A program made the translations under genes and the position numbers. Below, one piece after another: positions 1 through 58,226 of a stretch of DNA of 64,000 nucleotides. Source of the DNA: Bacteroidales bacterium (GTDB lineage Bacteria > Bacteroidota > Bacteroidia > Bacteroidales > UBA932); assembly GCA_022648545.1 (NCBI GenBank), contig JALCMP010000002.1:1-64000 (forward strand). Direction: 5' to 3'. Within the stretch, counting starts at the first letter, position 1. Every line of letters starts with the position of its first letter. Below the pieces are notes generated by a model, which did no database searches, had not been told where the DNA came from, and saw nothing but the letters and a program-made list of their open reading frames with translations.

Positions 1-172
1 TGTTTCCTCCGATTCCTTTGAAAGGAGAAAAAGAAAAGATTATATATACAGTAGACTCCATGGCGTTACCCAAACGACGTAAATGTAACTTATTTTAGAT
101 TTCTGCTATAAATCTGCTACATATATCCAAAATTTTTTATGTTTTTACTAATCAATGCTTTATAATATATAT
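1..172. repeat. Direct repeat copy A (~172 bp, may begin before the window)
   Basis: This stretch recurs at 1544-1715 in the same orientation with about 11 mismatches. Both copies are AT-rich and contain the phrase CAGTAGACT followed by an ATGGCnTTACCCAAA tract that opens only a 12-codon frame in this copy and is stopped after five codons in the other. Copy A runs directly into coding sequence of a truncated gene, so the repeat appears to have been pasted onto, or recombined into, that gene. Nothing else in it is recognised. Confidence 0.9.
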
Positions 173-797
173 TACTGAGACTCCAGAATCTGTTCGTAAT
201 GAAATTGGAGTTGAAATTGAGAAAATTATTTTTGAATATATTCCTGAGAATTTAGAACAGAATGTGTCATCTCTTTCTCACGAAAAACAGTTGGAAATGA
301 TATATTCGATTATGGAATGCATAAGCAAAAAAACAGGTCATTCCATATTAGATAAAGATCAAATAGAAATACGTCTACAAACCGCAATTTGTGAAATAAC
401 AAGAAAATTCTGTTGGGTTTATAGAGATTGGCAATCTGCAATAGGAGATGAAATGTTAGTATTACTTAATAATAGTTATAGATATTTTGATGTCATAGGT
501 TTTGCTGAATTTACAAAGAAAAAAGACGGAAATAGGTGGATAAAGAGAGTAGAAAGTTTATTTTCTAATTTAGATGTTTCAATTGGTAATAGATTTGATA
601 CCAGAGTTCGGCAAATAAAGGGAATCTATATTTCGCTTATTAGTCTAATTGAGACGTTAAATTCAAGTATAAATGATTATGAAGGAATTTCAAAGAACAG
701 TTTAGAAACTTTATCTGACTATAGGGATCAATTAACCAATAGTATGGGACTAAATAACGTTAAATCCAAGCAAAGAGGTGTAAGAAAAAATATTTAA
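171..797 (+). pseudogene. 3' fragment of an unknown protein gene, fused to the repeat
   Basis: The reading frame is open from about base 99 to the stop at 795-797, but protein-like sequence begins only where the direct repeat ends (~171): residues read TETPESVRNEIGVEIEK and continue without a plausible start codon. A GTG at 264 could start a 177-aa product, but it lies inside continuous coding sequence, so I read this as a gene that lost its 5' end at the repeat junction. The remaining ~200 residues are mostly helical and hydrophilic, ending in a basic tail (KSKQRGVRKN). I recognise no family. Confidence 0.6.
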
Positions 798-855
798 CGA
801 TTCTTTTTTCACATTAAGAAATATTTCAATTAACAAGGTGCATTTCTCCAAATAA

Positions 856-900
856 TTTGTTTATTCAAACAATAGTAGTTATCTTTGACGTTAGTAACGT
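856..900 (+). promoter_or_regulatory. higBA promoter with palindromic operator
   Basis: A Bacteroidetes -7 box TATCTTTG lies at 880-887 with a TTTG at 856-859 as a plausible -33 element (20-bp spacing). Directly after the -7 box is a perfect palindrome ACGTTA-G-TAACGT at 888-900, where transcription should start. Its position, 11 bp before the toxin ATG, fits an operator for the HigA antitoxin; binding by HigA is inference. Confidence 0.7.
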
Positions 901-911
901 AAAAGAGTGGT

Positions 912-1187
912 ATGATTGTTTCATTTGGCACAAAAGATACTGAAAAGATTTGGCAAGGTGAACGGGTAAGGAGAATACCTATTATGATACAACATATTGG
1001 GCGAAGAAAATTAAGGATGATAAACAACTCCCAAACTTTATCCGATCTTAGAATACCCCCGTCGAACAGACTCGAGAAATTACAAGGTTCGGATTTTTAC
1101 AGTATCAGAATCAATAACCAGTGGAGAATAGTTTTCAGGTGGATTGATAACAATGCACACGATATTGATATAATGGATTATCATTAA
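912..1187 (+). CDS. higB: HigB-type mRNA interferase toxin
   Basis: This 91-aa protein has the RelE/HigB fold signature of the plasmid-maintenance killer family: a short N-terminal strand (MIVSFGTKDTEKIW), a central helix ending in LRIPPSNRLEKLQG, and the terminal strands YSIRINNQWRIVFRW typical of ribosome-dependent RNases that cleave mRNA. It precedes higA by 17 bp in the toxin-first order characteristic of higBA. The putative operator just upstream indicates autoregulation by the toxin-antitoxin complex. The module sits between two 172-bp direct repeats, so loss of the segment by recombination would expose the cell to free toxin. All core segments look intact. Confidence 0.9.
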   Translation: MIVSFGTKDTEKIWQGERVRRIPIMIQHIGRRKLRMINNSQTLSDLRIPPSNRLEKLQGSDFYSIRINNQWRIVFRWIDNNAHDIDIMDYH

Positions 1188-1204
1188 AAATACAGGAGGT
1201 TAAA

Positions 1205-1507
1205 ATGGCAAGATTGGCAAATATTCATCCCGGAGAAATATTACTCGAAGAGTTTCTGCATCCTCTTGGAATAACGGCATACAAACTATCAAAGGATACA
1301 AATATACCGCAGACCCGTATTTCCCAGATCATAAAAGGCAAACGCAGGATAACTGCAGATACGGCATTAAGGTTTGCTTCCTATTTCGGTACGACGGCAA
1401 AATTCTGGCTTGGTTTGCAGAATGATTTCGATATCGAAGAAGAACAGGAAAACAAGGAAGATGTTTTTATGGAGATAAAACAGAAAGCACCACAGCAGGC
1501 AATATGA
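1205..1507 (+). CDS. higA: HigA-type antitoxin, XRE-family DNA-binding protein
   Basis: This 100-aa protein begins MARLANIHPGEILLEEFL, the hallmark of HigA antitoxins, followed by an XRE helix-turn-helix (ITAYKLSKDTNIPQTRISQII, about residues 23-43) and an acidic C-terminus. It should neutralise HigB and repress the operon. An unusually good Shine-Dalgarno for this phylum, CAGGAGGT, sits 7 bp before the ATG, which may raise antitoxin translation relative to toxin; that ratio effect is inference. The gene is complete. Confidence 0.92.
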   Translation: MARLANIHPGEILLEEFLHPLGITAYKLSKDTNIPQTRISQIIKGKRRITADTALRFASYFGTTAKFWLGLQNDFDIEEEQENKEDVFMEIKQKAPQQAI

Positions 1508-1543
1508 AATTATAAAGATTAAAAACATTTCCTCCAATTCCCA

Positions 1544-1715
1544 TGTTTCCTCCGATTCCTTTGAAAGGAGAAAAAGAAAATATTATATACACAGTAGACT
1601 ATATGGCATTACCCAAATGACGTAAATGTAACTTATTTTATATTTCTGCTATAAATCTGCTATATATATCCAAAATGTTTTATATTTTTACTAATCAATA
1701 CTTTATAATATATAT
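1544..1715. repeat. Direct repeat copy B (~172 bp)
   Basis: This is the second copy of the sequence at 1-172, in the same orientation and 1543 bp downstream. The two copies bracket the gene fragment and higBA. The remaining part of 1508-1940 is AT-rich noncoding DNA holding this repeat, a short pentamer tract and a terminator hairpin. Confidence 0.9.
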
Positions 1716-3097: not shown

Positions 3098-4994
3098 TTA
3101 TTCCTTTACACACCGAACAGAAAATCCGTGAGCACGACTATCATTGGAAGATGCGCCAATATCGCCACTGTAGAAAAACAGGCGATAAGAATACTTAGAA
3201 GCCATAGAAATAGATGCGGACCAATAAAGTGAATGGGAGCCAATGCGGGAAAACGCCCCCAAAATACAATCCCAATATCCGGCCGCCGGATAAAATGTTT
3301 TTCCTGTAGGATTAGTATTATCGGCTCCACCCCATAAAGCATCATTTTGGTATTGCCTGTTATCAGAAATTGTATACCAGTCATACCCTATGTTATTGCC
3401 TCTTATTCCAAAATAAAATATCATTGGATTTTTTATTGAATTCTTAAGATTTAGTATTCTGTCACTTGTAGTAGCAACAGCAGGTTTATGTTTTATTCCT
3501 GTTCCGGATGTTCCACTTTCTTCCGTAAGAACTGTTCCGTTAGCATTATATCGGTAAACTTGTATAAACATCATTTTCTGATAAATAATAATTACTTGCT
3601 CCCGGGAATGGATCTTTTCTACCCCACTGATATAGTAGCCCCATTATCGTTACAGTTGCCGGAGTCGTTGACGTTGCTCCCAAATTCCTGTCCATCCATA
3701 TATAGCTGCCGTTTGCATTTGCTATTGTGTATATGTCTCCGTTTTTTATGGGAGAGATATCAGGGTCATAATCCGTAACCCAAATATGCCAACTCCACAG
3801 AATATCGCCCGTTTGGTTCTCTCCCGAATATGCAGCAATTACGGCAGTCCCGGTTTGAGTAGCATTATACGCAGTGATTTGAACCGCCTGATTTTCACTT
3901 GTAAAACCGTTAAGCGAAATAAGATCCGGAGAAGTTTCCCATAGTATCCCGACAGATGATGCCGTATGGTTTACATCCAGTCCGGTACCTGCCTCAGCTT
4001 CTGAATTACCATTCCCCTTCACATTCACCGGAATAATCAGACTATTCCCTGGTGCGATCATGTAGCAATTAGCTGTATTCGTAACCTCAACCGCCGAGCT
4101 CTTTATGGTTACATCGAAAGTATACTGGGTACCGGCAAGCAAACCAAATGCAGAAGCATCATCAACCGTTCCGATTATATCTTCCCCGTCTATAGTAAAC
4201 GTAAACTTAAGGCTTCCGCTCAATGCCGTATTGTTCGGAACCATCAATATATATACAGGAGAAGTACTTCCCGAAGCAATACCACTGATTCCTACATCGC
4301 TTATAGTTACAGTTCCTTTATCTCCGTCCGAAGGGACGCCGACTTTCCCCGTAAACAGATTATACGTATCGGATGAAATAACACCGGGGTTTTCAATCTT
4401 TATCTTACTTATCGCACAGGCTCCGTCGTATGATACATCTCTGGTAAATCTGAATACAAACCGTGAATAAATATACTTAAGATTAAACGATACCGGCGAT
4501 CCGCCGGCAGCGGAGACGTCGTTCTTCTGACAACATAAATCTTTGTCCTCCGAGTAAAGCCGGGATGTAAGCGTAACATTACCGTCCGAACCTACCGAAC
4601 TATCATACGGATAATAAGCACGCAATTTGGCAAGACTCTTAGTCAGATATATCTGTTTCCTATTGTCCGAAGGGCTCCAGCTCGTTCCCGACGAATTACC
4701 GGAGGAATATTTTATATTGTCTGCGGTACCTGAATAACAGGAACCTGCCATACGGAACACTCCGATGCTTTTGCCGGTCCAATTCCAGTCTCCCGACTTT
4801 GTCCACGACGATGCAGAACTGCCGCCGGTCGCGACATTGAGTGAGACCTCACCAATCTGCAAGGGAACCAGTGTCTCTTCTTCAGCATTGCCGTTATCTT
4901 CCTTCTTGCATCCTGAAAAAAGAAGAATACCTACAACAAATACGAAAACCATAAAAGTTCCCGTAAATTCTTTCCGTTCTATTTCTATTTCCAT
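3098..4994 (-). pseudogene. Fimbrillin-family lipoprotein with FISUMP/lectin-like C-terminus, frameshifted
   Basis: This is a damaged paralogue of the intact gene at 51346-53397. It starts MEIEIERKEF and has a lipoprotein signal (VVGILLFSGCKK), an Mfa-like fimbrillin domain, then WMDRNLGA and QWGRKDPFPGA typical of FISUMP-type domains, and the terminal GFSVRCVKE. Two lesions are visible against the intact copy. First, 2 bp (TA) are missing in the tract coding for PIYN (near 3555), which stops the frame after SLPI; the rest continues in another frame from 3574 downwards. Second, about 43 codons are deleted in frame between NPTGKT and FYPAAGY. An upstream GTG at 5048 would add 18 residues but is less likely than the ATG at 4994. 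The first frame could still make a truncated ~480-aa lipoprotein. Confidence 0.85.
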
Positions 4995-5118
4995 TTCTTT
5001 TAATTCTTTATTTACAATATTTACCGAGCAAGACACAAAAATCCTCACCGGGGATCTCTTCCTATGTGATTTCAGACAAGAAAACCGTACCTTTACGGTC
5101 GTTTGATTTAATAAACAG

Positions 5119-5389
5119 ATATATGCGTTCCATAGGCCTGCGTAGTTTTTAAAGCTTGAAGTTTAAAACACGAAAAGAGCGTGAGAAGCGTTTATTCGTC
5201 TTAGAGGTACAACCACGCACCCACAGATACAAATAAGCACAACCCACGCTCAAGCGCAGGCGTTTCAATTGCTTATTGCTTTGTACCTGTTTTGAAAGTG
5301 GTTGTTTTCTAAGACAAAGACAATAGCTAAAAACGCTAATTTTCTATTATGTCATCAAGGGGAAATATTCTGGTTTCCACCCGATAACG
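5119..5389 (-). ncRNA. Structured leader RNA element, copy 1
   Basis: Read on the minus strand, this ~270-nt segment matches 50911-51177 and lies between a -7 box and the fimbrillin gene in both places. It folds into a long hairpin: outer arms at 5308-5315 and 5198-5205 (GTCTTAGA/TCTAAGAC), then 5298-5305 with 5209-5216, then arms around 5280-5290 and 5223-5233. Where the two copies differ in the arms, the partner base changes too, so the structure is conserved rather than the sequence. Whether it acts as a 5' UTR switch or a separate small RNA is not shown. Confidence 0.7.
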
Positions 5390-5397
5390 CAAATGTA
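5390..5397 (-). promoter_or_regulatory. -7 box TACATTTG for the structured leader/fimbrillin copy 1
   Basis: On the minus strand the box TACATTTG sits just before the leader, and the flanking sequence to about 5420 (TTTACATAA further upstream) is shared with the second copy at 50881-50910, which supports a real promoter. Confidence 0.7.
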
Positions 5398-5423
5398 TAT
5401 AAAGTTTTGATTATGTAAAACAA

Positions 5424-7169
5424 TCAACTGGCAAAATGACGATAGAAGCATGACATCACCCTGTTCACTTCCCTTGGAATGATAACCATGTTCAATGCGT
5501 TTTCTTCTACGTCCCAGCCGTAAACAAACGGATTTTTCATTAATACGGCATCATTGGCCGGAATACTGTCGCGATTCCTCAATTTTGATATTACGACATC
5601 ATATTTTGAGGTTCCTTCAACTTCCCGCGCCGCTTCAAAATATTGTAAAGCTTCGTCATACTTTTCTATTTTGAAATTACAAACGGCCAATATACGGAAC
5701 AGGGAAACCTTTGTACCGAAAACGGTATCGACATCAGGAAAATAAAGATTGTATTTAAGATAGTCTTCAGCAGTTCTTATAAACGATTTAATTTTATCGG
5801 CATCTTCAAACCAGGAGTCATCGAGAGAATATTTAAGGAAAACAGTATCTTCATTTATCAAACTCTTGCGCATCCACATCATTCCGGGAACAATAACCCA
5901 GACTGCAGGAAATTTTATTCCGGGATGCTGTACATCAATTACAATCAATTCCTCGTTTTCCTTTTTCAGCAAATCAGTAAAATAGTCTACATCATCACGG
6001 AAATCGGAATTACGCGGAAAGGATTTACGGAGATATTCAAATGACACCATCGGGGCATCACCGTCCAGAAGAAAGGATAAATCCCTGTCCGTAAGATAAC
6101 TGCGGAATTCACTATTATGAATTGAAACAGCCTTCCCATATGTCTTTTTCATATTAAGAACCCAGTGCTTCCATATTATATCGGGTCCGGAGTTTATGAA
6201 AAGCTTTTCAGGAGGATCGGGAGTTTGCCGTCTTTCGGTCAAACATCTCAGAACAGCTTCCGTAAGATTCAGAGCAGCCCCTGCGTTTACCTGGCAATAG
6301 AATATATCCTTTTTCAGCCTATTATCAGTCTTTTCCAGATTATGGTCTATAAGAATAACCCCCACAACAGGAAATTTTCCGCCAAGAGAAAAATCTTTTA
6401 TGATTACGTCTATATTGTTTTTATTGTAAAATGATATCTGATCTTTTATATCCCGACAGGATATCGTATCCGGATCGATTGTAGGAACAGAAATATGGTC
6501 ATACATTATTTTAAAATAGCAGTAACGCTCTATTACCTCCGATAGACCCTGCGTTATAGCTTCTTCCAATGTGTTTCCCGATGCCGTTCCGTTTGTCCCT
6601 CCTATTTTGGAAACGAATTTTACCGGAATCTTCACTTTTTCATTATTTGTTAAAGAATATCCGGTTACCCAGTGAAACTTTGCAATATCCGATTTCAACA
6701 AAATTTTTCTGTCTTCATCTTGACGGATATCTATTGGAATAAATTGTTCCGGATAAATCTTACGCAAGCCATCATCAATATCTTTATAACTATACCCTTT
6801 TAGAAAAGTATAATTCCTTATTTTATAAAAAAGATCTTCATCAAAATTAACATTGGAAAACAAATCCTTTCTTTTAGGCAAATGTGTTAATTTTAAAAAA
6901 AAGCCTCCCGATGAAATACGTTCTGCAGCCTCTGCATAAGCGCTGGCTTTTGATAAAACGGGGGTCGTTCCTTTGCCAAAACTGTAAAAGGGAGACCTGC
7001 TTACAATACATCTGCCGCTAAAGACGCCAAGACCCGTAATCCTTTTAAAAGGGTTATATTTGAGATCAAGTCCTATTACGGAGATTCCTTCTTCTATTCT
7101 CTTTATCGTATTTTCCGGAATATCAGATTTGTAATTATTAAAGACCTTGGGGGAATTTTTTAATATCAT
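5424..7169 (-). CDS. YcaO-domain protein (RiPP backbone-modifying enzyme)
   Basis: This 581-aa protein has the ATP-binding signatures of YcaO enzymes: GKGTTPVLSKASAYAEAAER at residues 65-84 and NGTASGNTLEEAI followed by EVIERYC at about 193-217, plus NAGAALNLTEAVLRCLTERR. YcaO proteins activate peptide amide carbonyls with ATP to make azolines, thioamides or amidines. The C-terminal third contains a TPR-like segment (FKIEKYDEALQYFEAAREVEG). No ThiF/E1-like or flavin dehydrogenase partner is nearby, so classic azoline formation is not indicated. It diverges from the 42-aa lasso-type precursor at 7258 across an 88-bp intergenic region, which suggests a shared pathway. Start: ATG at 7169, with no upstream alternative. 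Confidence 0.85.
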   Translation of the reverse strand: MILKNSPKVFNNYKSDIPENTIKRIEEGISVIGLDLKYNPFKRITGLGVFSGRCIVSRSPFYSFGKGTTPVLSKASAYAEAAERISSGGFFLKLTHLPKRKDLFSNVNFDEDLFYKIRNYTFLKGYSYKDIDDGLRKIYPEQFIPIDIRQDEDRKILLKSDIAKFHWVTGYSLTNNEKVKIPVKFVSKIGGTNGTASGNTLEEAITQGLSEVIERYCYFKIMYDHISVPTIDPDTISCRDIKDQISFYNKNNIDVIIKDFSLGGKFPVVGVILIDHNLEKTDNRLKKDIFYCQVNAGAALNLTEAVLRCLTERRQTPDPPEKLFINSGPDIIWKHWVLNMKKTYGKAVSIHNSEFRSYLTDRDLSFLLDGDAPMVSFEYLRKSFPRNSDFRDDVDYFTDLLKKENEELIVIDVQHPGIKFPAVWVIVPGMMWMRKSLINEDTVFLKYSLDDSWFEDADKIKSFIRTAEDYLKYNLYFPDVDTVFGTKVSLFRILAVCNFKIEKYDEALQYFEAAREVEGTSKYDVVISKLRNRDSIPANDAVLMKNPFVYGWDVEENALNMVIIPREVNRVMSCFYRHFAS

Positions 7170-7208
7170 AAAAAGATTTATTTTATTTCGACAAAAATAA
7201 AATATTTT

Positions 7209-7216
7209 TATCTTTG
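7209..7216 (+). promoter_or_regulatory. -7 box TATCTTTG of the precursor gene
   Basis: A consensus TAnnTTTG box lies 41 bp before the precursor ATG, in the divergent region between it and the YcaO gene. No clear -33 element is seen. Confidence 0.65.
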
Positions 7217-7257
7217 TAAAGATAAATTTCGTATTTACAATAAAAACTATTTAACCT

Positions 7258-7386
7258 ATGAAAGCAAAAGAAAACAGCACAGAGTTGTGGACAACTCCCG
7301 AGATAAAGATAATTTCCGTTGATGAAACAATGTCTGGTTCCGGTACTAAGAATATGGATGCATTTAATTCATATGAAGAAAGTTAA
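7258..7386 (+). CDS. Lasso-peptide-type precursor 1 (42 aa)
   Basis: A 42-codon gene with leader MKAKENSTELWTTPE and a predicted core SGSGTKNMDAFNSYEES. Lasso precursors carry Thr at -2 of the core and an Asp/Glu at ring position 8 or 9; here Thr(-2)-Met(-1) precedes Ser1 and Asp is residue 9, giving a possible 9-residue macrolactam ring. The core resembles the known lasso peptide paeninodin (AGPGTSTPDAF as I recall it): G2, G4, T5, D9, A10 and F11 agree. It ends in Ser, the residue phosphorylated in paeninodin. A second 42-aa precursor with the same MK.K...W.TPE leader lies at 49569. It is followed by a hairpin and then the acyltransferase genes. Exact cleavage and ring sites are inference. 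Confidence 0.85.
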   Translation: MKAKENSTELWTTPEIKIISVDETMSGSGTKNMDAFNSYEES

Positions 7387-7409
7387 TATTCACAATTAGA
7401 ATTCAATAT

Positions 7410-7440
7410 AGCACGCCTTAAAAAGACGTGCTTTTATTTT
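7410..7440 (+). terminator. Hairpin terminator after precursor 1
   Basis: AGCACG pairs with CGTGCT around an 11-nt loop and is followed by TTTTATTTT. It lies 23 bp after the precursor stop and 24 bp before the MBOAT gene, so it probably lets most transcripts end after the precursor and some continue, the usual way RiPP precursors are over-expressed relative to enzymes. Confidence 0.65.
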
Positions 7441-7463
7441 AAGACCTTCTTTCATTTTAATAT

Positions 7464-8915
7464 ATGCTTTTTAATTCCATTGACTTCGCATTTTTTTTGC
7501 CTGTCGTTTTTACTCTCTACTGGTTACTTTCAAATAAAAAATTAAAACTGCAGAATTTACTTGTAGTAATTGCAAGTTATGTTTTCTACGGATGGTGGGA
7601 CTGGCGCTTTCTTTTTTTAATGTTCTTTAGTACGATCGTCGATTATTCGGTAGGGCTCGGACTGATGAATCAGGAAAAACAGAAGAAACGCAAGCTGTTA
7701 TTATTTATCAGCATTTTAACCAATCTGGGACTTCTGGGATTTTTCAAGTATTATAATTTTTTCATAGAAAATTTCTGCACGGCATTTACTCTTTTGGGTA
7801 TGCCGATAAAAAACGTACATACTCTTAATATAGTTTTGCCGTTAGGGATAAGCTTTTATACTTTTCAAACATTAAGCTACAGCATTGACGTGTACAGGCG
7901 CAACCTCAAACCCACAAAAGATTTTATTGCTTTTGCCGGGTTCGTGAGTTTTTTCCCCCAGCTGGTAGCCGGACCTATAGAAAAAGCAAGCCATTTGCTT
8001 CCGCAGTTCTTAAAAAAACGATCTTTAGATTATTCTAAAGCATCCGACGGGATGCGGCAAATACTTTGGGGATTATTTAAGAAAGTAGTTATTGCAGATA
8101 ACTGCGCCGTATTTGTTGATAATATTTTTGCAAACAATCCAACATTTAACGGAAGCAGTTTAGCCGCAGGAGCAATTTTGTTTTCCATACAGGTATATTG
8201 CGACTTTTCCGGATATTCGGACATAGCGATAGGAACAGCACGCCTTTTCGGATTTGAATTGATGCAAAACTTCGCCTTTCCGTTTTTTTCAAGAAATATT
8301 GCGGAATTTTACCGGAGATGGCATATATCGCTTTTCAAATGGTTTAAGGATTATGTTTATATACCGCTCGGGGGGAACAGATGCAGCAAATTCAAGCACA
8401 TAAGAAATGTATTCATCGTTTTTATCATATGCGGATTATGGCACGGAGCCGGCTGGACATATCTTATGTGGGGAGTAATAAGTTCAATTTATTTTCTGCC
8501 TCTGCTGCTCGGGAGGAAAAAGAAAAAATATACAGATATAGTTGCAAAAGATAAAGTGTTCCCTTCCATCAAAGAGGTCATATCAATGTTCTCTACATTC
8601 TGTTTGTTTACGTTCTCGTGTATTTTTCTCAGGGCGGAAAACATAAATCAGGCATTCAGCTATATAAAAGGCCTTCTCTCAACATCTTTTTTCGAAAAGC
8701 CGGGATTCGGAGGCGGAGAGAAATTAAGAGAAATTATTCCTATTATTATTGTCTTTTTTATAATTGAATGGATAGGACGCAAAAATAAATATGCTATAGA
8801 AACGTTCGGATTAAAATGGCCTCGTCCGCTTAGATGGACATTTTATACAGCCATAATAATAATAAGTATGCTGCTTGCGGGGGAAGGCAAACAATTCGTT
8901 TATTTTCAGTTTTAA
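7464..8915 (+). CDS. MBOAT-family O-acyltransferase (AlgI/DltB-like)
   Basis: This 483-aa integral membrane protein has the MBOAT layout: an N-terminal membrane block (FFLPVVFTLYWLLS), the conserved FFPQLVAGPIEKA and FYRRWHISLFKWFKDYVYIPLGGNR region, and the invariant catalytic His at about residue 327 in GLWHGAGW. Such proteins pass an acyl group, usually acetyl, across the inner membrane to a partner that acylates polysaccharides or other periplasmic substrates. It is followed after 2 bp by an SGNH-like protein, the expected partner. Its place directly after a lasso-type precursor raises the possibility that the peptide or a surface polymer linked to its export is acylated, which is inference. 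Confidence 0.88.
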   Translation: MLFNSIDFAFFLPVVFTLYWLLSNKKLKLQNLLVVIASYVFYGWWDWRFLFLMFFSTIVDYSVGLGLMNQEKQKKRKLLLFISILTNLGLLGFFKYYNFFIENFCTAFTLLGMPIKNVHTLNIVLPLGISFYTFQTLSYSIDVYRRNLKPTKDFIAFAGFVSFFPQLVAGPIEKASHLLPQFLKKRSLDYSKASDGMRQILWGLFKKVVIADNCAVFVDNIFANNPTFNGSSLAAGAILFSIQVYCDFSGYSDIAIGTARLFGFELMQNFAFPFFSRNIAEFYRRWHISLFKWFKDYVYIPLGGNRCSKFKHIRNVFIVFIICGLWHGAGWTYLMWGVISSIYFLPLLLGRKKKKYTDIVAKDKVFPSIKEVISMFSTFCLFTFSCIFLRAENINQAFSYIKGLLSTSFFEKPGFGGGEKLREIIPIIIVFFIIEWIGRKNKYAIETFGLKWPRPLRWTFYTAIIIISMLLAGEGKQFVYFQF

Positions 8916-8917
8916 GC

Positions 8918-9826
8918 ATGAAAAGGTTTATTATAAACATATTTAAGTTTTCCGCTTTTTTCATATTGATTTTTTTTATATTGAATTTCATATGTAAATT
9001 ATATACGCCTGAAAAAGACAGGTTTCAGTGGAAATATGATGAATTGTTTCATCCTAAGGTAAAAGCAAAATTCGTCATATTCGGCACCTCCAAATCGGCA
9101 CGCGGCATTAATCCCAAAATACTGGAAACCGACAGCCTTTCGGTCTACAATTTTGCCTTCGATTCCTCGAATCCGGAATTCCTCTATTATTTATATACAA
9201 ATCTTTTCAGACATTATTATCCAAAACCAAAATTCATTTTAATGGACGTTACATGGATTATGCTAAATCCTACTATGCCGAGAAAGATAGAACAGGACAG
9301 CAGGTACTTTCCTTTAAAAGATTATTTGTATTTATTTTTTAATACTAAGAAAAAGCATCTGGCTTTTTTTAATCGTTACTATTTGTTTAACAGGGAAGTC
9401 AGCAAATATGGTGAAATTGATATTACTTATAACGGATTTACTCCCATAAACCATATAAAGACCCATGGCTTAACAAAACATGATCGCTCCTTTATACTAA
9501 AATTAAATGATGAAAAGCAATTGGACTATCTGAAATTGCTGCTTGAAGCATTTAAAAAGGATAGTATCAAAACCCTTCTTGTAATAATGCCCGATGATCT
9601 TGATGAGAATATGCAAAATAATCCGGTAATAACAAATGCCGTCCGCAAGCTCAAGGATGTTGCAAAAGACGAAAAGATAGAATTAATAGATTACCGGGAT
9701 TGCATTCATTCGGATTCGCTTTTTTACGACTGGAATCATTTAAACATAAACGGAGCACGAATCATGTCTGAAAAAATACGCAATGATATTGCAAAAAGGA
9801 CGACCCTGTATAAAGATAAGAATTAA
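8918..9826 (+). CDS. SGNH/AlgX-like acyltransferase partner, membrane-anchored
   Basis: This ~302-aa protein starts MKRFIINIFKF with one N-terminal membrane anchor and then shows SGNH-fold motifs: block I-like FGTSKSARG near residue 57 and block V DWNHLNINGARIM near residue 270, giving the Ser and Asp/His expected in the active site. The ATG at 8918 begins 2 bp after the MBOAT stop, much better than an upstream start at 8834 inside that gene. MBOAT plus SGNH pairs perform extracytoplasmic O-acetylation (AlgI/AlgJ/AlgX, PatA/PatB). It ends 4 bp from the convergent cyclase gene. Confidence 0.75.
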   Translation: MKRFIINIFKFSAFFILIFFILNFICKLYTPEKDRFQWKYDELFHPKVKAKFVIFGTSKSARGINPKILETDSLSVYNFAFDSSNPEFLYYLYTNLFRHYYPKPKFILMDVTWIMLNPTMPRKIEQDSRYFPLKDYLYLFFNTKKKHLAFFNRYYLFNREVSKYGEIDITYNGFTPINHIKTHGLTKHDRSFILKLNDEKQLDYLKLLLEAFKKDSIKTLLVIMPDDLDENMQNNPVITNAVRKLKDVAKDEKIELIDYRDCIHSDSLFYDWNHLNINGARIMSEKIRNDIAKRTTLYKDKN

Positions 9827-9830
9827 AAAT

Positions 9831-11705
9831 TCAAGAATTTTCCCACATAATATATGCGGCAATATGACGAATGATATGAAAGACCTTGCCAACTGGATAA
9901 TTTTCAACATCATTTTGCATTTTTTTCCATTCATTAATAATCGACACAACATCAACGTTACGGCCGAAACTCCCGGATTCCATTTCTCTTAAAATATTAT
10001 TCATTTCCTCCGGATAAGCACATAACCTTGCCGTAATGTCGGAACTTTGCTTCCCCTTCTTTTCATTCAGTCTTACAATATCAGGGAGCTTTCCTTTCAT
10101 CATGGAACGCAATATCCATTTATTCATCTTTCCTATGAACAGTTCATTAGGGATTGAAAGAGCACTTTCTATAACACGCGGATCAGCGGTAGGATCACGC
10201 AGCTCGATGCCCAATTCACATCCGGCATATGATCCGCAATGAAGTCTCAGCACGCCGAAATCCAGAATAAGAGATGAATTCTCATTGTGATTTACATAGT
10301 AACGTTTAAATGTGGGATCGAATCCGGATGCCTTCATTTTTTCAGCAAGTCCCAGCGAATCCTCAAATGATTTCATGCAATATGAGTAATTATGCCACGA
10401 TTCACGGCCACATGACATATTTTTATACATATTAGTAACCGGGTTATTTCCATACAAAAGAGGTTTTAACACTTTCTTCTTCACAAGCTTATAAACTCCG
10501 TATCGTTTTAATATCCACGAAGCCGGCATTGCATCTTCAAGACCTGTCCAGGATATAGTGGCATTACCGAATTCTCCCATTAAAAGCGTTCCGTAATTCC
10601 TCTTTGCAACAGTGTTATAGATATCAACTCCCCAATAGGCATTGCCCGCTCCATGGAAAGGTTCACCAAACAAGTCCACTCCTCTTTTTACTCCTTCTAT
10701 GGGGGATATCTCCGTGGAGGTTAAAAAATGAGGATCTATATTGCCGCTTGCTTCTACTATTGCTTTTATAAACGGACTTTCGTCGCCGAAATTATGGTTG
10801 GAGATAGACCTGGATGGAGAAAACCGCGGTACATGGCTGAATGCGGCAAGACGCTTACCCTGCCCTGCAAGATGTTCTGCGGCAAGCATGCAGACCGAAC
10901 TCGAATCCATTCCCCCGCTCAACGTTGCAGCAACAGGCTTGTAAGAACGAAGACGGCATTTTACAGCTTTATTAAAATTATCAAAAAGGTCTTCCACATA
11001 GTCTTCTAACTTTAATCCTTTACGCTCCTTAATCTCTTCATAATTCCAGTAGCGGTTCAACTTCGAATCGTTTTTTGAAACGCTTAAGGTGCGCGATGGC
11101 AAAAGACGCAATATATTTTTAAAGTACGTTTTGTCAAACTCGCCCGGCCAGATTACAAGAAGACGGGCTATCATTAATTCATCGAGCTCTTTCTTTATGA
11201 AAGGCAGAGGCTGCAGGCCTTTGTTGGAAGTGGCGAATGCAACAACCTTGTCGTTAATATAATAATCTATTGAAGTATAATCCCATTTGTCGCGGGCAAT
11301 AAAAAGTTTTTGCGAATCGGTGTGGAATGCCGCAAGCGACCATTTGCCCATGAGTCTGTCAACACAGTCCTCCCCCCATTTCCTGTATGCCAGGAATATA
11401 AGGTTACCGTCCGGAATGTTTTTTTGTTCTTCCGCGGGCACGTTAAGCGGCGCAAACAGTTCGTCCCTGTTGTCTATCCGGCCTTCTGCAACAAAAAGCA
11501 GTTTTTCATCTTCCAGCCATTTGGGCATACACTCGTTTACAGCCTCGGGAGTATTGTAGGTAAGCATATGCCCCATCCCGCAATTTCCATGGACAAGAAA
11601 GGCATGCTTTTCATGAGGGAAGTGTTTTATCCCGCCGTACATTGTTTCAAGTTCGCTGGTAACGGGCTTGCCGTCCCTGTAGAAGATTCCAAAAATTGCA
11701 CTCAT
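9831..11705 (-). CDS. Asparagine-synthetase-like lasso cyclase 1
   Basis: A 624-aa protein with an N-terminal glutamine-amidotransferase-like domain and a C-terminal synthetase domain containing the PP-loop SGGMDSSS (residues 263-270). Residue 2 is Ser where true AsnB has the catalytic Cys2, so glutaminase activity is not expected; this fits lasso cyclases (McjC type), which adenylate the ring Asp/Glu and close the macrolactam. The start is the ATG at 11705 (MSAIFGIFYR), matching its close paralogue at 47660-49540; an ORF start 9 bp upstream is less likely. It converges on the SGNH gene and has its own promoter. No B1/B2 leader-binding or peptidase gene is present nearby. Confidence 0.82.
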   Translation of the reverse strand: MSAIFGIFYRDGKPVTSELETMYGGIKHFPHEKHAFLVHGNCGMGHMLTYNTPEAVNECMPKWLEDEKLLFVAEGRIDNRDELFAPLNVPAEEQKNIPDGNLIFLAYRKWGEDCVDRLMGKWSLAAFHTDSQKLFIARDKWDYTSIDYYINDKVVAFATSNKGLQPLPFIKKELDELMIARLLVIWPGEFDKTYFKNILRLLPSRTLSVSKNDSKLNRYWNYEEIKERKGLKLEDYVEDLFDNFNKAVKCRLRSYKPVAATLSGGMDSSSVCMLAAEHLAGQGKRLAAFSHVPRFSPSRSISNHNFGDESPFIKAIVEASGNIDPHFLTSTEISPIEGVKRGVDLFGEPFHGAGNAYWGVDIYNTVAKRNYGTLLMGEFGNATISWTGLEDAMPASWILKRYGVYKLVKKKVLKPLLYGNNPVTNMYKNMSCGRESWHNYSYCMKSFEDSLGLAEKMKASGFDPTFKRYYVNHNENSSLILDFGVLRLHCGSYAGCELGIELRDPTADPRVIESALSIPNELFIGKMNKWILRSMMKGKLPDIVRLNEKKGKQSSDITARLCAYPEEMNNILREMESGSFGRNVDVVSIINEWKKMQNDVENYPVGKVFHIIRHIAAYIMWENS

Positions 11706-11721
11706 ATATAACAAATTCCGC

Positions 11722-11729
11722 CAAAGATA
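11722..11729 (-). promoter_or_regulatory. -7 box TATCTTTG of lasso cyclase 1
   Basis: On the minus strand TATCTTTG lies only 17 bp before the cyclase ATG, predicting a very short leader of about ten bases. Confidence 0.65.
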
Positions 11730-16922: not shown

Positions 16923-18488
16923 ATGACCAAAGAACAGGAACGCGATGAGTTGCATCGCACGATTTGGCAAATTGCCAACGATTTACGGGGGAGTGTGGAT
17001 GGATGGGATTTCAAATCCTATGTATTGGGAATGCTGTTTTACAGGTTTATTTCAGAAAATATAACCAATCATCTTAACAATATAACTCGTGCTGCGCATG
17101 GCAATGAAGACTTTGACTACGCGGAAATAAGTGATCAGATGGCCGAAAATGCACGTCACAGCACTACCGTGGAAAAAGGGTTTTATATTCTGCCGTCGGA
17201 ATTGTTTGAGAATGTAAGAAAGAGAGCAAAAAACGATAAAAATCTGAACGAAACTCTGGAACGTGTTTTCAAGAATATAGAAGGCTCTGCAACAGGATAT
17301 GAAAGCGAAGGCGATTTAAAAGGTTTGTTCGACGATATTGATGTAAACAGCAACAAGCTTGGTTCTACGGTCGCCAAAAGGAACGAACTGCTTGTAAAAA
17401 TACTCAATGCGGTCGGAGATATGAAACTTGGCGAATATCAGGAAAACTCCATTGATACTTTCGGCGATGCATACGAATATCTTATGACGATGTATGCCGG
17501 CAATGCAGGAAAATCCGGAGGGGAATTCTTTACCCCTCAGGAAGTTTCCGAATTACTCGCCGAAATTACCGTAGTAGGGAAAAAGGAAGTTAACAAAGTA
17601 TATGATCCATGCTGCGGTTCAGGTTCTCTTTTGTTAAAATTTGCAAAAGTTTTGGGAAAGGAAAATGTAAGGCAGGGATTTTTCGGACAGGAAATAAATC
17701 TTACGACATATAATCTATGCCGTATAAATATGTTTTTGCACGATATAAACTATGAAAGATTTGATATAGCTCATGGTAATACACTTACGGATCCAAAACA
17801 TTGGGATGACGAGCCGTTCGATGCCATCGTTTCCAATCCGCCATATTCGATCAAATGGGAAGGAGATGCCAATCCTCTTTTAATTAACGATCCGAGGTTT
17901 GCTCCGGCAGGTGTGCTTGCACCGAAGAGTAAAGCCGACCTGGCTTTTACCATGCACATGCTTTCGTGGTTATCGCCTTCCGGAACAGCTGCCATTGTAG
18001 AATTCCCGGGTGTACTTTATCGAGGAGGAGCAGAGAAGAAAATACGTCAATATCTCATAGACAACAATTACATAGACACCGTAATCCAACTTCCGCCAAA
18101 CTTGTTCTTCGGTACAACTATTGCCACCTGCGTTATTATACTCAAAAAAAGCAAAAAGGACAATGCCACATTGTTTATCGATGCATCGAACGAGTTCGTG
18201 CATGAAGGAAATAAAAACAAGCTTTCCGAAGAAAACCGGAAGAAAATACTCAATGCTTTTATAGAACGTAAAAATGATGATTACTTCGTAAAGTTAGTTT
18301 CGAATGCCGACATCGCCAGGAATGATTATAATATAGCTGTCAGCAGTTATGTGGAGCAGAAGGATACGACTGAAAAAGTAGACATCAAAACGCTGAATGC
18401 TCAAATTGCCGATATTGTTGCAAAACAAAACCGACTTCGCTCCGATATAGACAAAATCGTGGATGATCTGGAAGGAGGTGAATTATGA
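16923..18488 (+). CDS. hsdM: Type I restriction-modification DNA methyltransferase, HsdM
   Basis: This 521-aa N6-adenine methyltransferase subunit carries an N-terminal HsdM domain (LHRTIWQIANDLRG...), the AdoMet motif DPCCGSGSL at 228-236 and the catalytic NPPY at 305-308. It forms the M2S trimer with HsdS and, with HsdR, the restriction complex. The stop overlaps the rhuM start by 4 bp (ATGA), so translation is coupled. It heads an operon hsdM-rhuM-hsdS-orf-doc-hsdR. Length and motifs are normal. Confidence 0.96.
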   Translation: MTKEQERDELHRTIWQIANDLRGSVDGWDFKSYVLGMLFYRFISENITNHLNNITRAAHGNEDFDYAEISDQMAENARHSTTVEKGFYILPSELFENVRKRAKNDKNLNETLERVFKNIEGSATGYESEGDLKGLFDDIDVNSNKLGSTVAKRNELLVKILNAVGDMKLGEYQENSIDTFGDAYEYLMTMYAGNAGKSGGEFFTPQEVSELLAEITVVGKKEVNKVYDPCCGSGSLLLKFAKVLGKENVRQGFFGQEINLTTYNLCRINMFLHDINYERFDIAHGNTLTDPKHWDDEPFDAIVSNPPYSIKWEGDANPLLINDPRFAPAGVLAPKSKADLAFTMHMLSWLSPSGTAAIVEFPGVLYRGGAEKKIRQYLIDNNYIDTVIQLPPNLFFGTTIATCVIILKKSKKDNATLFIDASNEFVHEGNKNKLSEENRKKILNAFIERKNDDYFVKLVSNADIARNDYNIAVSSYVEQKDTTEKVDIKTLNAQIADIVAKQNRLRSDIDKIVDDLEGGEL

Positions 18489-20666: not shown

Positions 20667-20671
20667 AAACA

Positions 20672-21691: not shown

Positions 21692-21692
21692 T

Positions 21693-22145
21693 ATGATCTT
21701 TTATATTACACCGGAACAGGCAAGACAGACGCATAGTAAAACAATCGAATACAGCGGAGGAGGTAACTATGATGTCCTGAATTTGGGCTACTTGTTAAGT
21801 GCTTTGGAACTGATTCAAAACGACGATTATTATCCTGCATTTGAGGATAAACTGGTTCATCTAATATGGTCAATCAATAAAAACCACGCTTATTCTGATG
21901 GGAATAAACGATTGTCCATTACATTAGGTGTCCAATTTTTATCACTCAATGGATATTTGTTTTGCATAGAACGATTTCTTCACGAAATGGAAAATATCAG
22001 CTATCATTTGGCTGCCGGGCATATTAATAAAGAACTCTTAGCAGAGTTAATACATTCTTTCCTGATGAATGAAGAGGATTTTTGCGAAGAACTTAAATTA
22101 AAATTATTATTAGCTATTTCTAATCAGGAAATTGGTTTCGATTAA
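21693..22145 (+). CDS. doc: Death-on-curing (Doc/Fic) family toxin
   Basis: A 150-aa protein with the Doc version of the Fic core, HAYSDGNKR at residues 65-73, and the upstream helix LVHLIWSINKNH. Doc-type enzymes phosphorylate EF-Tu, whereas canonical Fic proteins AMPylate. The final GNKR instead of GNGR supports the Doc assignment. It lies 1 bp behind a probable antitoxin gene and 14 bp before hsdR, inside the R-M operon, where it could punish loss of the operon. Confidence 0.88.
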   Translation: MIFYITPEQARQTHSKTIEYSGGGNYDVLNLGYLLSALELIQNDDYYPAFEDKLVHLIWSINKNHAYSDGNKRLSITLGVQFLSLNGYLFCIERFLHEMENISYHLAAGHINKELLAELIHSFLMNEEDFCEELKLKLLLAISNQEIGFD

Positions 22146-22159
22146 AATATTTAAACATT

Positions 22160-46759: not shown

Positions 46760-47668
46760 ATGTATAAATACTGGGGATACGGACTAAATATTGCTTCGGA
46801 GATAGAATTTCCGGAATTACTAAAATACGATTTCGACGTTCCGGATGTAGAATATACAACCGGAAAAGTACCAAATAAGATTGACGGAATATCCGTTTCC
46901 TTCAAAAAGTATTCTTACATCGTAAACGAAAAAGAACTTCTTTTTAATGTCTATGACGTTGCACGTTACTACGCTGCCGATGGTTGTAAAATCATTATAG
47001 AACCATCCGCAGCCGAAAATAATATGCGCAGCATCCGCATTCATGTTCTTGCAACCGTTATGGCAGCGATCCTGCTGCACAGGAAAATGATTGCGGTCCA
47101 CGCTTCCGCCATAAAACATGACGGCAAACTCATTCTTATAACAGGACAAAGCCATGCCGGCAAATCAACTGTACTGGCGGAATTGTTGAAAAAAGGATAT
47201 CCCGTTTTCAGCGACGATATAATAGTAATGCATAAGGATGGAACAAATGCCCCTATACTGGCGGCAGCATCCTATCCTATGATAAAATTGTGGGACGATA
47301 CGATAGAAAAATTAAACGATCCGTCATTCGAAGACCATTCGTTCAGAATTCAAAAAGACATAGACAAATACGGCTTTTTCTTCCATGATGATTTCGACAA
47401 AAAGCAATATCCCATAAAAAAGATATTCATTCTTAACGTAGAAAATATTCCGCACCTCATATCAAGGATATTGACAGGCAGAAATGCTTTCGAAGCATTG
47501 GTAAAACAAGTATACCGTCCAATGCTGATTCAAAGCAATAAGGAACAATTCTTATGTTTTACCCTTATAACCGATCTTGTAAAACATTGTGATGTAATTG
47601 AGATCCGTCGTCCTGCCGAATACGATACTACCGGCATATTGGCCGATTTTATGGAATCCTTATTGTAA
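46760..47668 (+). CDS. HPr-kinase-like lasso-peptide tail kinase
   Basis: A 302-aa protein with an HPr kinase/phosphorylase-like C-terminal domain: AVHASAIKHDGKLILITGQSH, Walker A GQSHAGKST (129-137), and FSDDI (150-154). The N-terminal 90 residues are a small domain without recognised motif. Proteins of this kind in lasso clusters (paeninodin type) phosphorylate the side chain of the C-terminal Ser of the precursor. Both precursors in this window end in Ser. The gene's 3' end overlaps that of the convergent cyclase by 9 bp. A general HprK role is unlikely because of the length and context. Confidence 0.78.
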   Translation: MYKYWGYGLNIASEIEFPELLKYDFDVPDVEYTTGKVPNKIDGISVSFKKYSYIVNEKELLFNVYDVARYYAADGCKIIIEPSAAENNMRSIRIHVLATVMAAILLHRKMIAVHASAIKHDGKLILITGQSHAGKSTVLAELLKKGYPVFSDDIIVMHKDGTNAPILAAASYPMIKLWDDTIEKLNDPSFEDHSFRIQKDIDKYGFFFHDDFDKKQYPIKKIFILNVENIPHLISRILTGRNAFEALVKQVYRPMLIQSNKEQFLCFTLITDLVKHCDVIEIRRPAEYDTTGILADFMESLL

Positions 47669-49540
47669 ACACCTTCTCCACATCATATATACGGCAACAG
47701 GCCTGAGAACATGAAAAACATTATTCAAAGGATAATTTGTACTGTCTGATTGCATTTTCTGCCATTCCGCACGAATACGTTTCATATCGGCAATTCTGCC
47801 GAAATCAGAATTATCCATTTCACTCAAAATATTGTTCATTTCATCGGGATAAGCACATAATCTAGCTGTAAGATCAGAGCTTTGCTTTCCTTTCTTCGTA
47901 TTTAGCCGTACTACGTCGGGCAATTTGTCTTTCATCATGGTACGCAACACCCATTTATTCATCTCGCCCAGATACATTTCGTTTGGAATTGAAAGTGCAC
48001 TTTCGATCACCCGGGGATCCCCCGTCGGATCACGCAATTCCAATCCAGTCTCACATCCAAGATACGCCCCGTAAAGAAGCCGTAACGCATTTAACTCTAA
48101 CATCAGAACTGCCTTACAGTTAGGATCCTTAAAATATCGTTTGAAGGTTGGGTCGAACCCCGATCGTTTTATTTTTTCTGCAAGACCCAGCGATTTTTCA
48201 AATGCTTCCGAACTATATGCAATTTCTCTCCACGGCTGGCTTCCAAATGCTATCCGTTTATAAATATCTGCAACAAAGGTATTACCATACAAGAGAGGTT
48301 TCAATATCCTCTTTTTTATTAAGCTTTTCATTCCGTAACGCCGGAGTAGCTCTCTGGCCGGAAGAGCCTCTTCAATCCCGGTCCTTGAAATTGTTGCATT
48401 GCCGAATTCCCCTATAAGCATGGATCCGTAACCTTCTAGAACTGCCGTTTTATATATATCCACCAGCCAGTAAGCATTCCCGGCTGCATGAGATGGTTCT
48501 CCGAATAAACGGATAAATTCTTTTATCCCCTCTATTGGCGATATTTTTGCCGAATCGAGAAATATGGGATCGATATTACCACTAGATTTCACTATCGCAT
48601 CTATAAAAGGCTTTTCATTACCAATTATATTATTCAACAGAGAATTTGATGGCAGAAACTCAGGAATATGGCTATACGTTCTCAGATGTTTCCCTTCATT
48701 TTTCAAGTAATCGGCTGCAAGTACACACACGGTACTAGAATCCATACCCCCGCTTAGCGTTGCAGCAACAGGCTTATAGGAACGCAGTCTGCTTTTCACA
48801 GCTTTATTCAGGTTTTCAAAAAGATCTTCCACATAATCTTCAAGCTTCAACCCTTCACGAACCTTGATATTCGCATAATTCCAATAACGGTATAATCCGG
48901 AATGTTCACGCGTAACCCGTAATGCATGAGATGGCAAAAGACGTTTAATACCCTTGAAAAATGTTTTATCCGCCCCCCCCGGCCATACGACCAACATACG
49001 GGCGATCATCAATTCATCTATTTCTTTCTTGATAAACGGTAATTGAAAAAGTCCTTTAGAAGAGGTGGAGAACGCAAATACTTTATCGTCAATATAATAG
49101 TCAATTGATGTATAATCCCATTTGTCTCGTGTAATAAATAATTTTTGGATATCAGTATGAAAAGCGGACAAAGACCATTTACCAACGAGTTTATCAATAC
49201 ATTTCTCCCCCCATTTCCGATAAGCTTTAAGAATGAGATCTCCATCCGGAATTTTTGCTTGTTCGCTTGCAGGGACATCAAGTAACCCGAATAGTTCGTC
49301 ACGATTATCGATACGTCCTTCGGCAACAAAAAGGAGCTTTTCCTTTTCGATCCATTTGGGCATAGTCTCATAGACAGCCTCCGGTGTATTGTAGGTAAGC
49401 ATGTGTCCTAACCCGCAATTTCCATGTATTGCAAAAGCATACTTTTCATGAGGGAAATGCATCATCCCCCTATACATGAATTCCAATTCGTCGGAAACAG
49501 GTTTACCCTCTCTGTAAAAAAGGCCGAAGATAACGCTCAT
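47660..49540 (-). CDS. Asparagine-synthetase-like lasso cyclase 2
   Basis: A 626-aa paralogue of cyclase 1 with high similarity over its whole length, starting MSVIFGLFYREGKPV and carrying the PP-loop SGGMDSSTVC (about 263-272). Again residue 2 is Ser, not Cys, so no glutaminase activity is expected. It is 28 bp downstream of precursor 2 on the same strand, a classic A-C gene order, and should form the macrolactam ring. The tail kinase is convergent at its 3' end. Codon use is similar in both cyclases, fitting an internal duplication. Confidence 0.85.
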   Translation of the reverse strand: MSVIFGLFYREGKPVSDELEFMYRGMMHFPHEKYAFAIHGNCGLGHMLTYNTPEAVYETMPKWIEKEKLLFVAEGRIDNRDELFGLLDVPASEQAKIPDGDLILKAYRKWGEKCIDKLVGKWSLSAFHTDIQKLFITRDKWDYTSIDYYIDDKVFAFSTSSKGLFQLPFIKKEIDELMIARMLVVWPGGADKTFFKGIKRLLPSHALRVTREHSGLYRYWNYANIKVREGLKLEDYVEDLFENLNKAVKSRLRSYKPVAATLSGGMDSSTVCVLAADYLKNEGKHLRTYSHIPEFLPSNSLLNNIIGNEKPFIDAIVKSSGNIDPIFLDSAKISPIEGIKEFIRLFGEPSHAAGNAYWLVDIYKTAVLEGYGSMLIGEFGNATISRTGIEEALPARELLRRYGMKSLIKKRILKPLLYGNTFVADIYKRIAFGSQPWREIAYSSEAFEKSLGLAEKIKRSGFDPTFKRYFKDPNCKAVLMLELNALRLLYGAYLGCETGLELRDPTGDPRVIESALSIPNEMYLGEMNKWVLRTMMKDKLPDVVRLNTKKGKQSSDLTARLCAYPDEMNNILSEMDNSDFGRIADMKRIRAEWQKMQSDSTNYPLNNVFHVLRPVAVYMMWRRCLQ

Positions 49541-49568
49541 TTTTATAGATTAAGAGCGGGCTTTTTTA

Positions 49569-50767: not shown

Positions 50768-50902
50768 GTCTTATTGTGAATTACGGTAATACACAAATAT
50801 AACATTAATATCATCAGACTGTTTCATAAAATCCCGACAGATGATAGAACTATCGGAAACAAAGAAATATCCTGATATTTTTTACATAAACAAAACTTTA
50901 TT

Positions 50903-50910
50903 TACATTTG
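50903..50910 (+). promoter_or_regulatory. -7 box TACATTTG for the structured leader/fimbrillin copy 2
   Basis: Same box and flanks as in copy 1 (5390-5397), conserved with TTTACATAA upstream. Confidence 0.7.
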
Positions 50911-56616: not shown

Positions 56617-56620
56617 TATT

Positions 56621-58221: not shown

Positions 58222-58226
58222 AATGA

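What the first reader, a model, noticed from the sequence alone, without database searches (positions are those of the whole stretch)
5424..11729. Lasso locus combined with YcaO and MBOAT/SGNH enzymes
A lasso-type precursor lies divergent from a standalone YcaO and is followed by an O-acyltransferase pair and a lasso cyclase. YcaO enzymes and acyl transfer are not part of known paeninodin-type pathways, so the product may be a thioamide- or amidine-bearing, acylated lasso peptide. This is the best candidate for an undescribed system here.
Basis: inference. Interest (0 to 1): 0.85.

Follow-up and report, generated by a model that had tools for sequence, protein, structure and literature searches.

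The report
Lasso-peptide locus carrying a YcaO enzyme
A bacterium of the Bacteroidales type carries a small gene set for a knotted 'lasso' peptide next to a YcaO peptide-backbone enzyme, and one relative pairs a related YcaO with a different lasso machinery, which hints at a chemically altered lasso peptide that has not been isolated.

Summary
Precursor and cyclase are lasso-like: paeninodin-type WxxP leader, Thr at -2, acceptor D9, C-terminal Ser, cyclase without the glutaminase Cys.

The YcaO link gained one outside case. This YcaO subfamily is very rare (2 of 398 family genomes, this one included). The other copy (57% identical, genome G260) overlaps a lasso cyclase gene by 4 bp in a complete lasso cluster, although those cyclases are only 22% identical to this one. 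No YcaO lies in 15 other Bacteroidota lasso-cyclase neighbourhoods, so it is a rare accessory.

The acyl-transfer part is not supported: MBOAT homologues occur in 72 of 169 family genomes, and 0 of 13 neighbourhoods fetched hold a lasso cyclase, B1, B2 or YcaO.

The locus lacks B1 and B2. It looks like one of two satellite precursor-cyclase loci (the second, with a kinase, at 46760-49697) that would depend on a fuller cluster on contig C51.

Best reading: a tailored lasso pathway whose YcaO modifies the peptide backbone; the chemistry is undetermined. Two cases only; no product known.

The parts
5424..7169 (-). YcaO-domain protein, 581 aa, with a weak TPR match in its C-terminal region; ATP/Mg residues kept (E80, E83, E203, E211, E214, R215)
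   Evidence: PF02624 180.4 bits; TPR_1 18.2 bits, below cut-off; alignment to E. coli YcaO 4q84; residues read; only YcaO in the genome
7170..7257 (.). 88-nt divergent intergenic region between YcaO and precursor; TATCTTTG on + and TATTTTTG on - resemble the Bacteroidota -7 box TAnnTTTG (motif recalled, no tool tested it)
   Evidence: sequence
7258..7386 (+). lasso-type precursor A1, MKAKENSTELWTTPEIKIISVDETM/SGSGTKNMDAFNSYEES; predicted ring S1-D9, C-terminal Ser
   Evidence: NF033524 E 5.5e-5, 22.8 bits, below cut-off 27; motif rule
7410..7440 (+). hairpin followed by a T-rich tract between precursor and MBOAT, possible attenuator/terminator
   Evidence: 80-nt fold z -2.43, 3 of 200 shuffles as good; not listed by the consensus terminator scan
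7464..8915 (+). MBOAT O-acyltransferase (DltB-like); probably a bystander
   Evidence: PF03062 90.7 bits; common in the family without lasso genes
8918..9826 (+). SGNH/DltD-like partner of the MBOAT; probably a bystander
   Evidence: TIGR04092 E 2e-4, 20.7 bits against cut-off 150; PF04914 E 0.02
9831..11705 (-). lasso-type macrolactam cyclase C1; SGGMDS motif at 263, no Cys2
   Evidence: NF033535 E 1.7e-87, 294.6 bits against cut-off 525; PF00733
46760..47668 (+). second locus: HPr-kinase-like protein (lasso kinase type)
   Evidence: PF07475 E 4e-6, 26.8 bits against cut-off 33.3; TIGR04352 E 3e-7, below cut-off
47660..49540 (-). second locus: cyclase C2, 67% identical to C1
49569..49697 (-). 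second locus: precursor A2, MKTKGENKFKEIWETPEANVLRINYQTN/MELTGETFDGDLYS
   Evidence: ORF list; motif rule; no family match

Best explanation
This is a satellite lasso-peptide locus with an added YcaO tailoring enzyme. Steps: precursor A1 is made (inferred). A PqqD-type B1 protein, supplied in trans from the fuller cluster on contig C51, binds the WxxP leader (inferred). YcaO uses ATP to activate a backbone amide of A1 and converts it to a thioamide, amidine or oxazoline (inferred; class chemistry). A B2 peptidase, not found in this 85%-complete assembly, removes the leader (inferred). C1 joins Ser1 to Asp9 (inferred from homology and motif). An HprK-type kinase may phosphorylate the final Ser (inferred). 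MBOAT/SGNH is most likely a neighbouring acyl-transfer module, not part of the pathway. Shown here: gene content, motifs, and recurrence of YcaO beside a different lasso cyclase.
For: The YcaO subfamily is rare: 2 of 398 family genomes at >=57% identity, 1 of 393 in the order sample, 1 of 39 in the genus, 1 of 101 in G260's genus; each count includes this genome or G260. Both copies found sit in lasso loci. In G260 it starts 4 bp before the end of a cyclase gene (8665 against 8668), 1.9 kb from precursor Ab, in a cluster with B1 (NF033536 72.8 bits, cut-off 80; PF05402 69.6, cut-off 23.4), B2 (NF033537 73.6 bits, cut-off 33), HprK-like kinase, NTP transferase and ABC transporter (transporter by BLAST to C51). 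The G260 cyclases are only 22% identical to C1, so this is not simple shared synteny. The 13.5-kb G260 cluster is about 0.6% of its 2.4-Mb genome (rough, post hoc). ATP/Mg residues kept in both copies. Satellite model: G560, 99% complete, has a C1-type precursor-cyclase pair (64%) without B1/B2 nearby, and its only PqqD match lies in a cluster with B2 (NF033537 57.2 bits, over cut-off) on another contig.
Against: Only two cases. Of 15 other Bacteroidota lasso-cyclase neighbourhoods, and the C51 and G560-main clusters, none has YcaO. In the window YcaO is divergent from A1, not in one operon with it. The G260 copy ends about 127 residues short, and a second YcaO remnant lies nearby, so decay is possible. 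B2 was not found in this genome. C51 is a separate contig of a MAG and its membership is assumed. TfuA was sought and not found; no other YcaO partner was sought.
Confidence: 0.5

Rival explanations
1. YcaO is a neighbour that acts on something else (for example a ribosomal protein, as E. coli YcaO does, or another RiPP), and the lasso precursor beside it is coincidence.
For: The best NCBIfam match is YcaO_for_S12, 94.5 bits against a cut-off of 700, and 4q84 is the best PDB hit. 17 other lasso loci (15 of the phylum sample, C51, G560 main cluster) lack it, as does locus 2 of the window. It is transcribed away from A1.
Against: It is absent from nearly all relatives sampled, so it is not housekeeping. 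The only other copy found overlaps a lasso cyclase gene. The 6 more distant YcaO loci of the family sample have no lasso cyclase, RRE or B2 match (one, L020, has an ABC-transporter match).
Confidence: 0.25
2. One reading: YcaO and MBOAT/SGNH both tailor the lasso peptide, giving a backbone-modified, O-acylated product.
For: MBOAT follows the precursor on the same strand, 77 nt downstream, and lies between precursor and cyclase. YcaO, A1, MBOAT and SGNH share low GC, 33-37%, against 43% for C1. The core carries Ser/Thr.
Against: MBOAT homologues are common without lasso genes (72 of 169 genomes; 0 of 13 fetched neighbourhoods with lasso cyclase, B1, B2 or YcaO; one has a weak HprK-like ORF). 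The other lasso loci examined have no MBOAT match. A possible terminator separates it from A1. DltD/SGNH partners act outside the cytoplasm (recalled).
Confidence: 0.1
3. The locus is a decaying or silent remnant: precursor and cyclase stranded without B1/B2, with unrelated genes moved in between.
For: No B1/B2 nearby; B2 not found in the genome. Cyclase and precursor lie on opposite strands, unlike locus 2 and G560. An arm of a 2-kb inverted repeat ends at 5420, next to the YcaO stop. G560's satellite carries a kinase match of short length.
Against: YcaO, MBOAT, SGNH and C1 are all open. C1 keeps its SGGMDS motif and 67% identity to C2. A1 keeps leader, ring and C-terminal motifs.
Confidence: 0.15

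Closest known systems
Paeninodin-type lasso peptides (paeninodin, pseudomycoidin)
   Same: WxxP leader, D/E ring acceptor, C-terminal Ser, HprK-like kinase and NTP transferase in the same genome; NF033524 and NF033535 matches (below their cut-offs)
   Different: Bacteroidota host; B1/B2 not at the locus; YcaO beside the precursor
YcaO-TfuA thioamitides
   Same: ATP-binding YcaO next to a RiPP precursor; one TfuA cluster with an albusnodin-like precursor is in print (PMC8120280, passages seen)
   Different: no TfuA found; here a lasso-type cyclase
ItfB-type amidine-forming YcaO of Bacteroidales
   Same: Bacteroidales YcaO in a RiPP setting (PMC10352776, passages seen)
   Different: those clusters pair YcaO with radical SAM; the about 30% identical YcaO copies in this family have no lasso cyclase beside them
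E. coli YcaO (RimO accessory)
   Same: closest NCBIfam and PDB match; TPR-like C-terminus (of E. coli YcaO: recalled)
   Different: 94.5 bits against a cut-off of 700; sporadic; sits in lasso loci
DltB/DltD acyl-transfer modules
   Same: MBOAT plus SGNH-like pair
   Different: both below the Dlt cut-offs; homologues are scattered in the family

Membership tests
Lasso peptide (paeninodin type) | precursor with [Y/W]xxP leader, T at -2, D/E at core 7-9, C-terminal Ser | tested here: met
   leader motif as in PMC13381572 (sections 6 and 9 read); T(-2) and ring rule recalled
Lasso peptide (paeninodin type) | NF033524 over curated cut-off | tested here: not met
   22.8 bits against 27
Lasso peptide (paeninodin type) | Asn-synthetase-like cyclase without glutaminase Cys2 | tested here: met
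   NF033535 E 1.7e-87 and PF00733 over cut-off; N-terminus and SGGMDS
Lasso peptide (paeninodin type) | cyclase over the NF033535 cut-off | tested here: not met
   294.6 against 525 bits; the cyclases of G260 and G560, in clusters with B1 and B2, also score only 170-256
Lasso peptide (paeninodin type) | B1 (RRE) available | tested here: met
   not at the locus; on C51 NF033536 70.0 bits (cut-off 80) and PF05402 55.0 bits, over cut-off
Lasso peptide (paeninodin type) | B2 leader peptidase available | tested here: inconclusive
   PF13471: one 20.9-bit match, a 497-aa protein that is not a lasso B2 by size and context, in an 85%-complete assembly
Lasso peptide (paeninodin type) | threaded macrolactam product | not testable with these tools
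   needs expression and MS/NMR
YcaO superfamily | YcaO domain with ATP/Mg residues | tested here: met
YcaO-TfuA thioamidation system | TfuA partner in the genome | tested here: not met
   0 of 3 genomes at E<=1; own assembly incomplete
TOMM azoline cyclodehydratase | C-terminal PxPxP (recalled) and TIGR03604 over cut-off | tested here: not met
   ends ...VMSCFYRHFAS; 66.4 against 219.25 bits
TOMM azoline cyclodehydratase | E1-like/ocin-ThiF partner | not tested
   no search run
RimO accessory YcaO | NF040716 over cut-off | tested here: not met
   94.5 against 700 bits
DltB/DltD | TIGR04091/TIGR04092 over cut-off | tested here: not met
   138.4 against 375 and 20.7 against 150 bits

The most novel reading that the evidence does not exclude
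A backbone-modified lasso peptide class: a stand-alone YcaO, without TfuA, converts an amide in the linear precursor before a paeninodin-type cyclase ties the knot, in satellite loci that borrow B1/B2 from a main cluster.
Probability: 0.4. Interest if true: 0.75.

Novelty: new variant of a known kind. Interest (0 to 1): 0.52.

Why it matters
Tailoring named in the passages I saw of two lasso reviews (PMC9266682, PMC8498205) includes phosphorylation, glycosylation, methylation, arginine deimination and D-amino acids; the word YcaO has 0 occurrences in the main text of either. A thioamide, amidine or oxazoline in the ring or tail of a lasso would be new chemistry on this scaffold as far as those texts go, and would show whether a YcaO can act on a lasso precursor delivered by a discrete B1. 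The satellite arrangement (cyclase plus precursor, helpers in trans) would change how lasso clusters are counted.

Tried and rejected
Structure prediction of YcaO from a two-sequence alignment gave pLDDT 37.4 and pTM 0.26, so it was not used and no fold search was run. The genome-contig scan with the YcaO alignment used only two short patterns and found one locus, JALCMW010000001.1, which matches G260 contig 1 in length and position; its sensitivity is low. Plasmids and viral contigs: no match. Rfam over the window at gathering thresholds: nothing. PF13471 in the own genome hit a larger transglutaminase-like protein on C7. PqqD matches on G000:C1 and G260:C2: no lasso cyclase match beside them. 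Idea dropped: a core Lys as the YcaO nucleophile. Both YcaO-linked cores have Lys, but so do 2 of 5 unlinked ones. Reading YcaO as housekeeping was set aside because of its rarity. A cyclase search of the family at 1e-60 found only this genome; G260's cyclases are too distant for that threshold, so it says nothing about how common lasso loci are in the family. The precursor rule does not carry over to distant loci: 1 of 4 further candidates fits.
Full report
What is there. The window is G000:C2:1-64000 of a 2.37-Mb, 85%-complete genome in 56 contigs. Its nearest relative by YcaO is titled a Bacteroidales MAG. The finding's genes are real: YcaO 5424-7169(-), precursor A1 7258-7386(+), MBOAT 7464-8915(+), SGNH-like 8918-9826(+), cyclase C1 9831-11705(-).

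Is it lasso? A1 reads MKAKENSTELWTTPEIKIISVDETM/SGSGTKNMDAFNSYEES. It has the WxxPx[L/V/I/F/A] motif of paeninodin-type leaders (PMC13381572, sections 6 and 9 read), Thr at -2, Asp at core position 9 and a final Ser. It matches the paeninodin family at E 5.5e-5 but under the curated cut-off. C1 matches the lasso cyclase model at E 1.7e-87, again below the cut-off, lacks the N-terminal glutaminase Cys and keeps SGGMDS. Six further precursors from this genome, G260 and G560 fit the same rule; shuffled tails do so 5-17% of the time each. The spacing was fixed after seeing these, and only 1 of 4 candidates from more distant loci fits it, so I use it as support within this group, not as a general test.

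A second locus and a main cluster. The window has a second precursor-cyclase pair with an HprK-like kinase at 46760-49697; C2 is 67% identical to C1. Contig C51 (9994 bases) carries the start of a kinase (40% over 65 residues to the window's), B1, NTP transferase, ABC transporter, three collar-type proteins (one tested by Pfam, two by eye), a formyltransferase-like protein, a precursor and two cyclases, one cut by the contig end. G560 (99% complete) shows the same split: a C1-type pair (64%) on contig 2, with only a kinase match beside it, and a cluster with B1, B2, sulfotransferase, kinase and cyclase on contig 3 that holds the only PqqD match of that genome. I read the window loci as satellites that would use B1/B2 in trans. 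That is inference; B2 was not found in this assembly.

Is YcaO part of it? The subfamily is rare: at >=57% identity it is in 2 of 398 family genomes, this one included. The other 6 hits of that search are 29-32% identical, and their neighbourhoods hold no lasso cyclase, RRE or B2 match; one has an ABC-transporter match. It is in 1 of 393 genomes of the order sample, 1 of 39 of the genus (this genome both times), and 1 of 101 of G260's genus (G260 itself). The copy in G260 starts 4 bp before the end of a lasso cyclase gene, in a cluster with precursors, B1, B2, kinase, sulfotransferase, NTP transferase and ABC transporter. G260's cyclases are only 22% identical to C1, so YcaO has met two unlike lasso systems. 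A chance placement inside a 13.5-kb cluster of a 2.4-Mb genome is about 0.6%, a rough figure made after the fact. Against: 15 of 15 other Bacteroidota lasso-cyclase neighbourhoods of the phylum sample (395 genomes), and the C51 and G560 main clusters, have no YcaO. It is an accessory, with two cases.

Chemistry. The residues that align with E. coli E75, E78, E191, E199, E202 and R203 (ATP/Mg role recalled) are kept. The enzyme passes the general models (TIGR00702, 84.4 against 75.65; PF02624) and fails the cut-offs for S12-, McrA- and SagD-type. No TfuA match in three genomes, no PxPxP at the C-terminus, and A1 and Ab have no Cys. So thiazoline is excluded for these precursors, TfuA-type thioamidation is disfavoured, and amidine, oxazoline or TfuA-free thioamide remain. 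An E1-like partner was not sought.

MBOAT/SGNH. Homologues at E<=1e-60 are in 72 of 169 family genomes. Of 13 neighbourhoods fetched, 0 have a lasso cyclase, B1, B2 or YcaO. One, L094, has an HprK-like ORF (25% to the window kinase; PF07475 E 0.007). Two lie among glycosyltransferase/sugar genes by eye (L094, L095), the others among assorted genes. No other lasso locus examined has an MBOAT match. A hairpin with a T-rich tail separates A1 from MBOAT (z -2.43), although the consensus terminator scan did not list it. I judge the pair a bystander.

What is in print. Listings seen (titles and starts of abstracts): 'lasso peptide' with YcaO (50 papers, 30 listed), thioamide (37, 15 listed), azoline (38, 15 listed), sulfotransferase (15, 12 listed), acyltransferase and kinase (23, 15 listed), Bacteroidetes (66, 15 listed), in trans with lasso cyclase (6, 5 listed), two narrower YcaO combinations (5 and 11 papers, 4 and 10 listed) and paeninodin (105, 25 listed). 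None of what I saw reports a characterised YcaO-modified lasso peptide; the unlisted papers were not seen. PMC8120280 (passages) reports a TfuA cluster with an albusnodin-like precursor. PMC10352776 (passages) lists one lasso-cyclase area among 1,340 areas in Bacteroidales. Passages only of PMC6511847, PMC12338566, PMC12710340, PMC7470986 and PMC7533575, and the abstract and outline of PMC13060819, added no case. The library lacks most subscription papers.

Noticed in passing
window 46760-49697: Second lasso locus: HprK-like kinase, cyclase C2 (67% to C1) and precursor A2 with an unusual predicted Met1 core.
   Followed up: yes
L008 1-9994 (contig C51): Fuller lasso cluster with two cyclases, B1, NTP transferase, ABC transporter, collar-domain proteins and a formyltransferase-like protein.
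   Followed up: partly
L018 2470-15955; L104 4458-17612; L044 2405-17518: Bacteroidota lasso clusters with a sulfotransferase (PF00685 in G260 and G560; 37% BLAST match in G938); in G260 and G560 also an APS-kinase-type gene, and in G560 and G938 collar-type proteins (by eye) and a formyltransferase match. May mean sulfated or formylated lasso peptides; a sulfotransferase gene in Firmicutes lasso clusters is mentioned in PMC8498205.
   Followed up: partly
[quoted passage not shown] This resembles the Linear Polyphosphorylated Peptide clusters of PMC13381572, described mainly from Bacillota; no precursor identified and no kinase match seen.
   Followed up: partly
window 3412-5420 and 50880-52948: About 2 kb inverted repeat (pieces 80-96% identical) with a surface-protein-like gene (no Pfam match), flanking 45 kb that holds both lasso loci; one arm ends at 5420, next to the YcaO stop at 5424.
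   Followed up: no
window 53741-54362 and 54646-62912: CRISPR-like array (10 repeats) followed by cas genes (Cas1 and Cas4 by Pfam, a helicase with a weak Cas3 match, a 935-aa protein with no Pfam match).
   Followed up: partly
window 16923-25198: Type I restriction-modification genes (HsdM 16923-18488 and HsdR 22160-25198 by Pfam).
   Followed up: no
window 1-1715: 172-nt direct repeats (94%) at 1-172 and 1544-1715 around a HigB-like toxin and HTH protein pair (912-1507).
   Followed up: no
L018 11793-12023: Remnant of a second YcaO gene (47% over residues 31-107) behind a hipBA-like pair (by eye) in G260.
   Followed up: no
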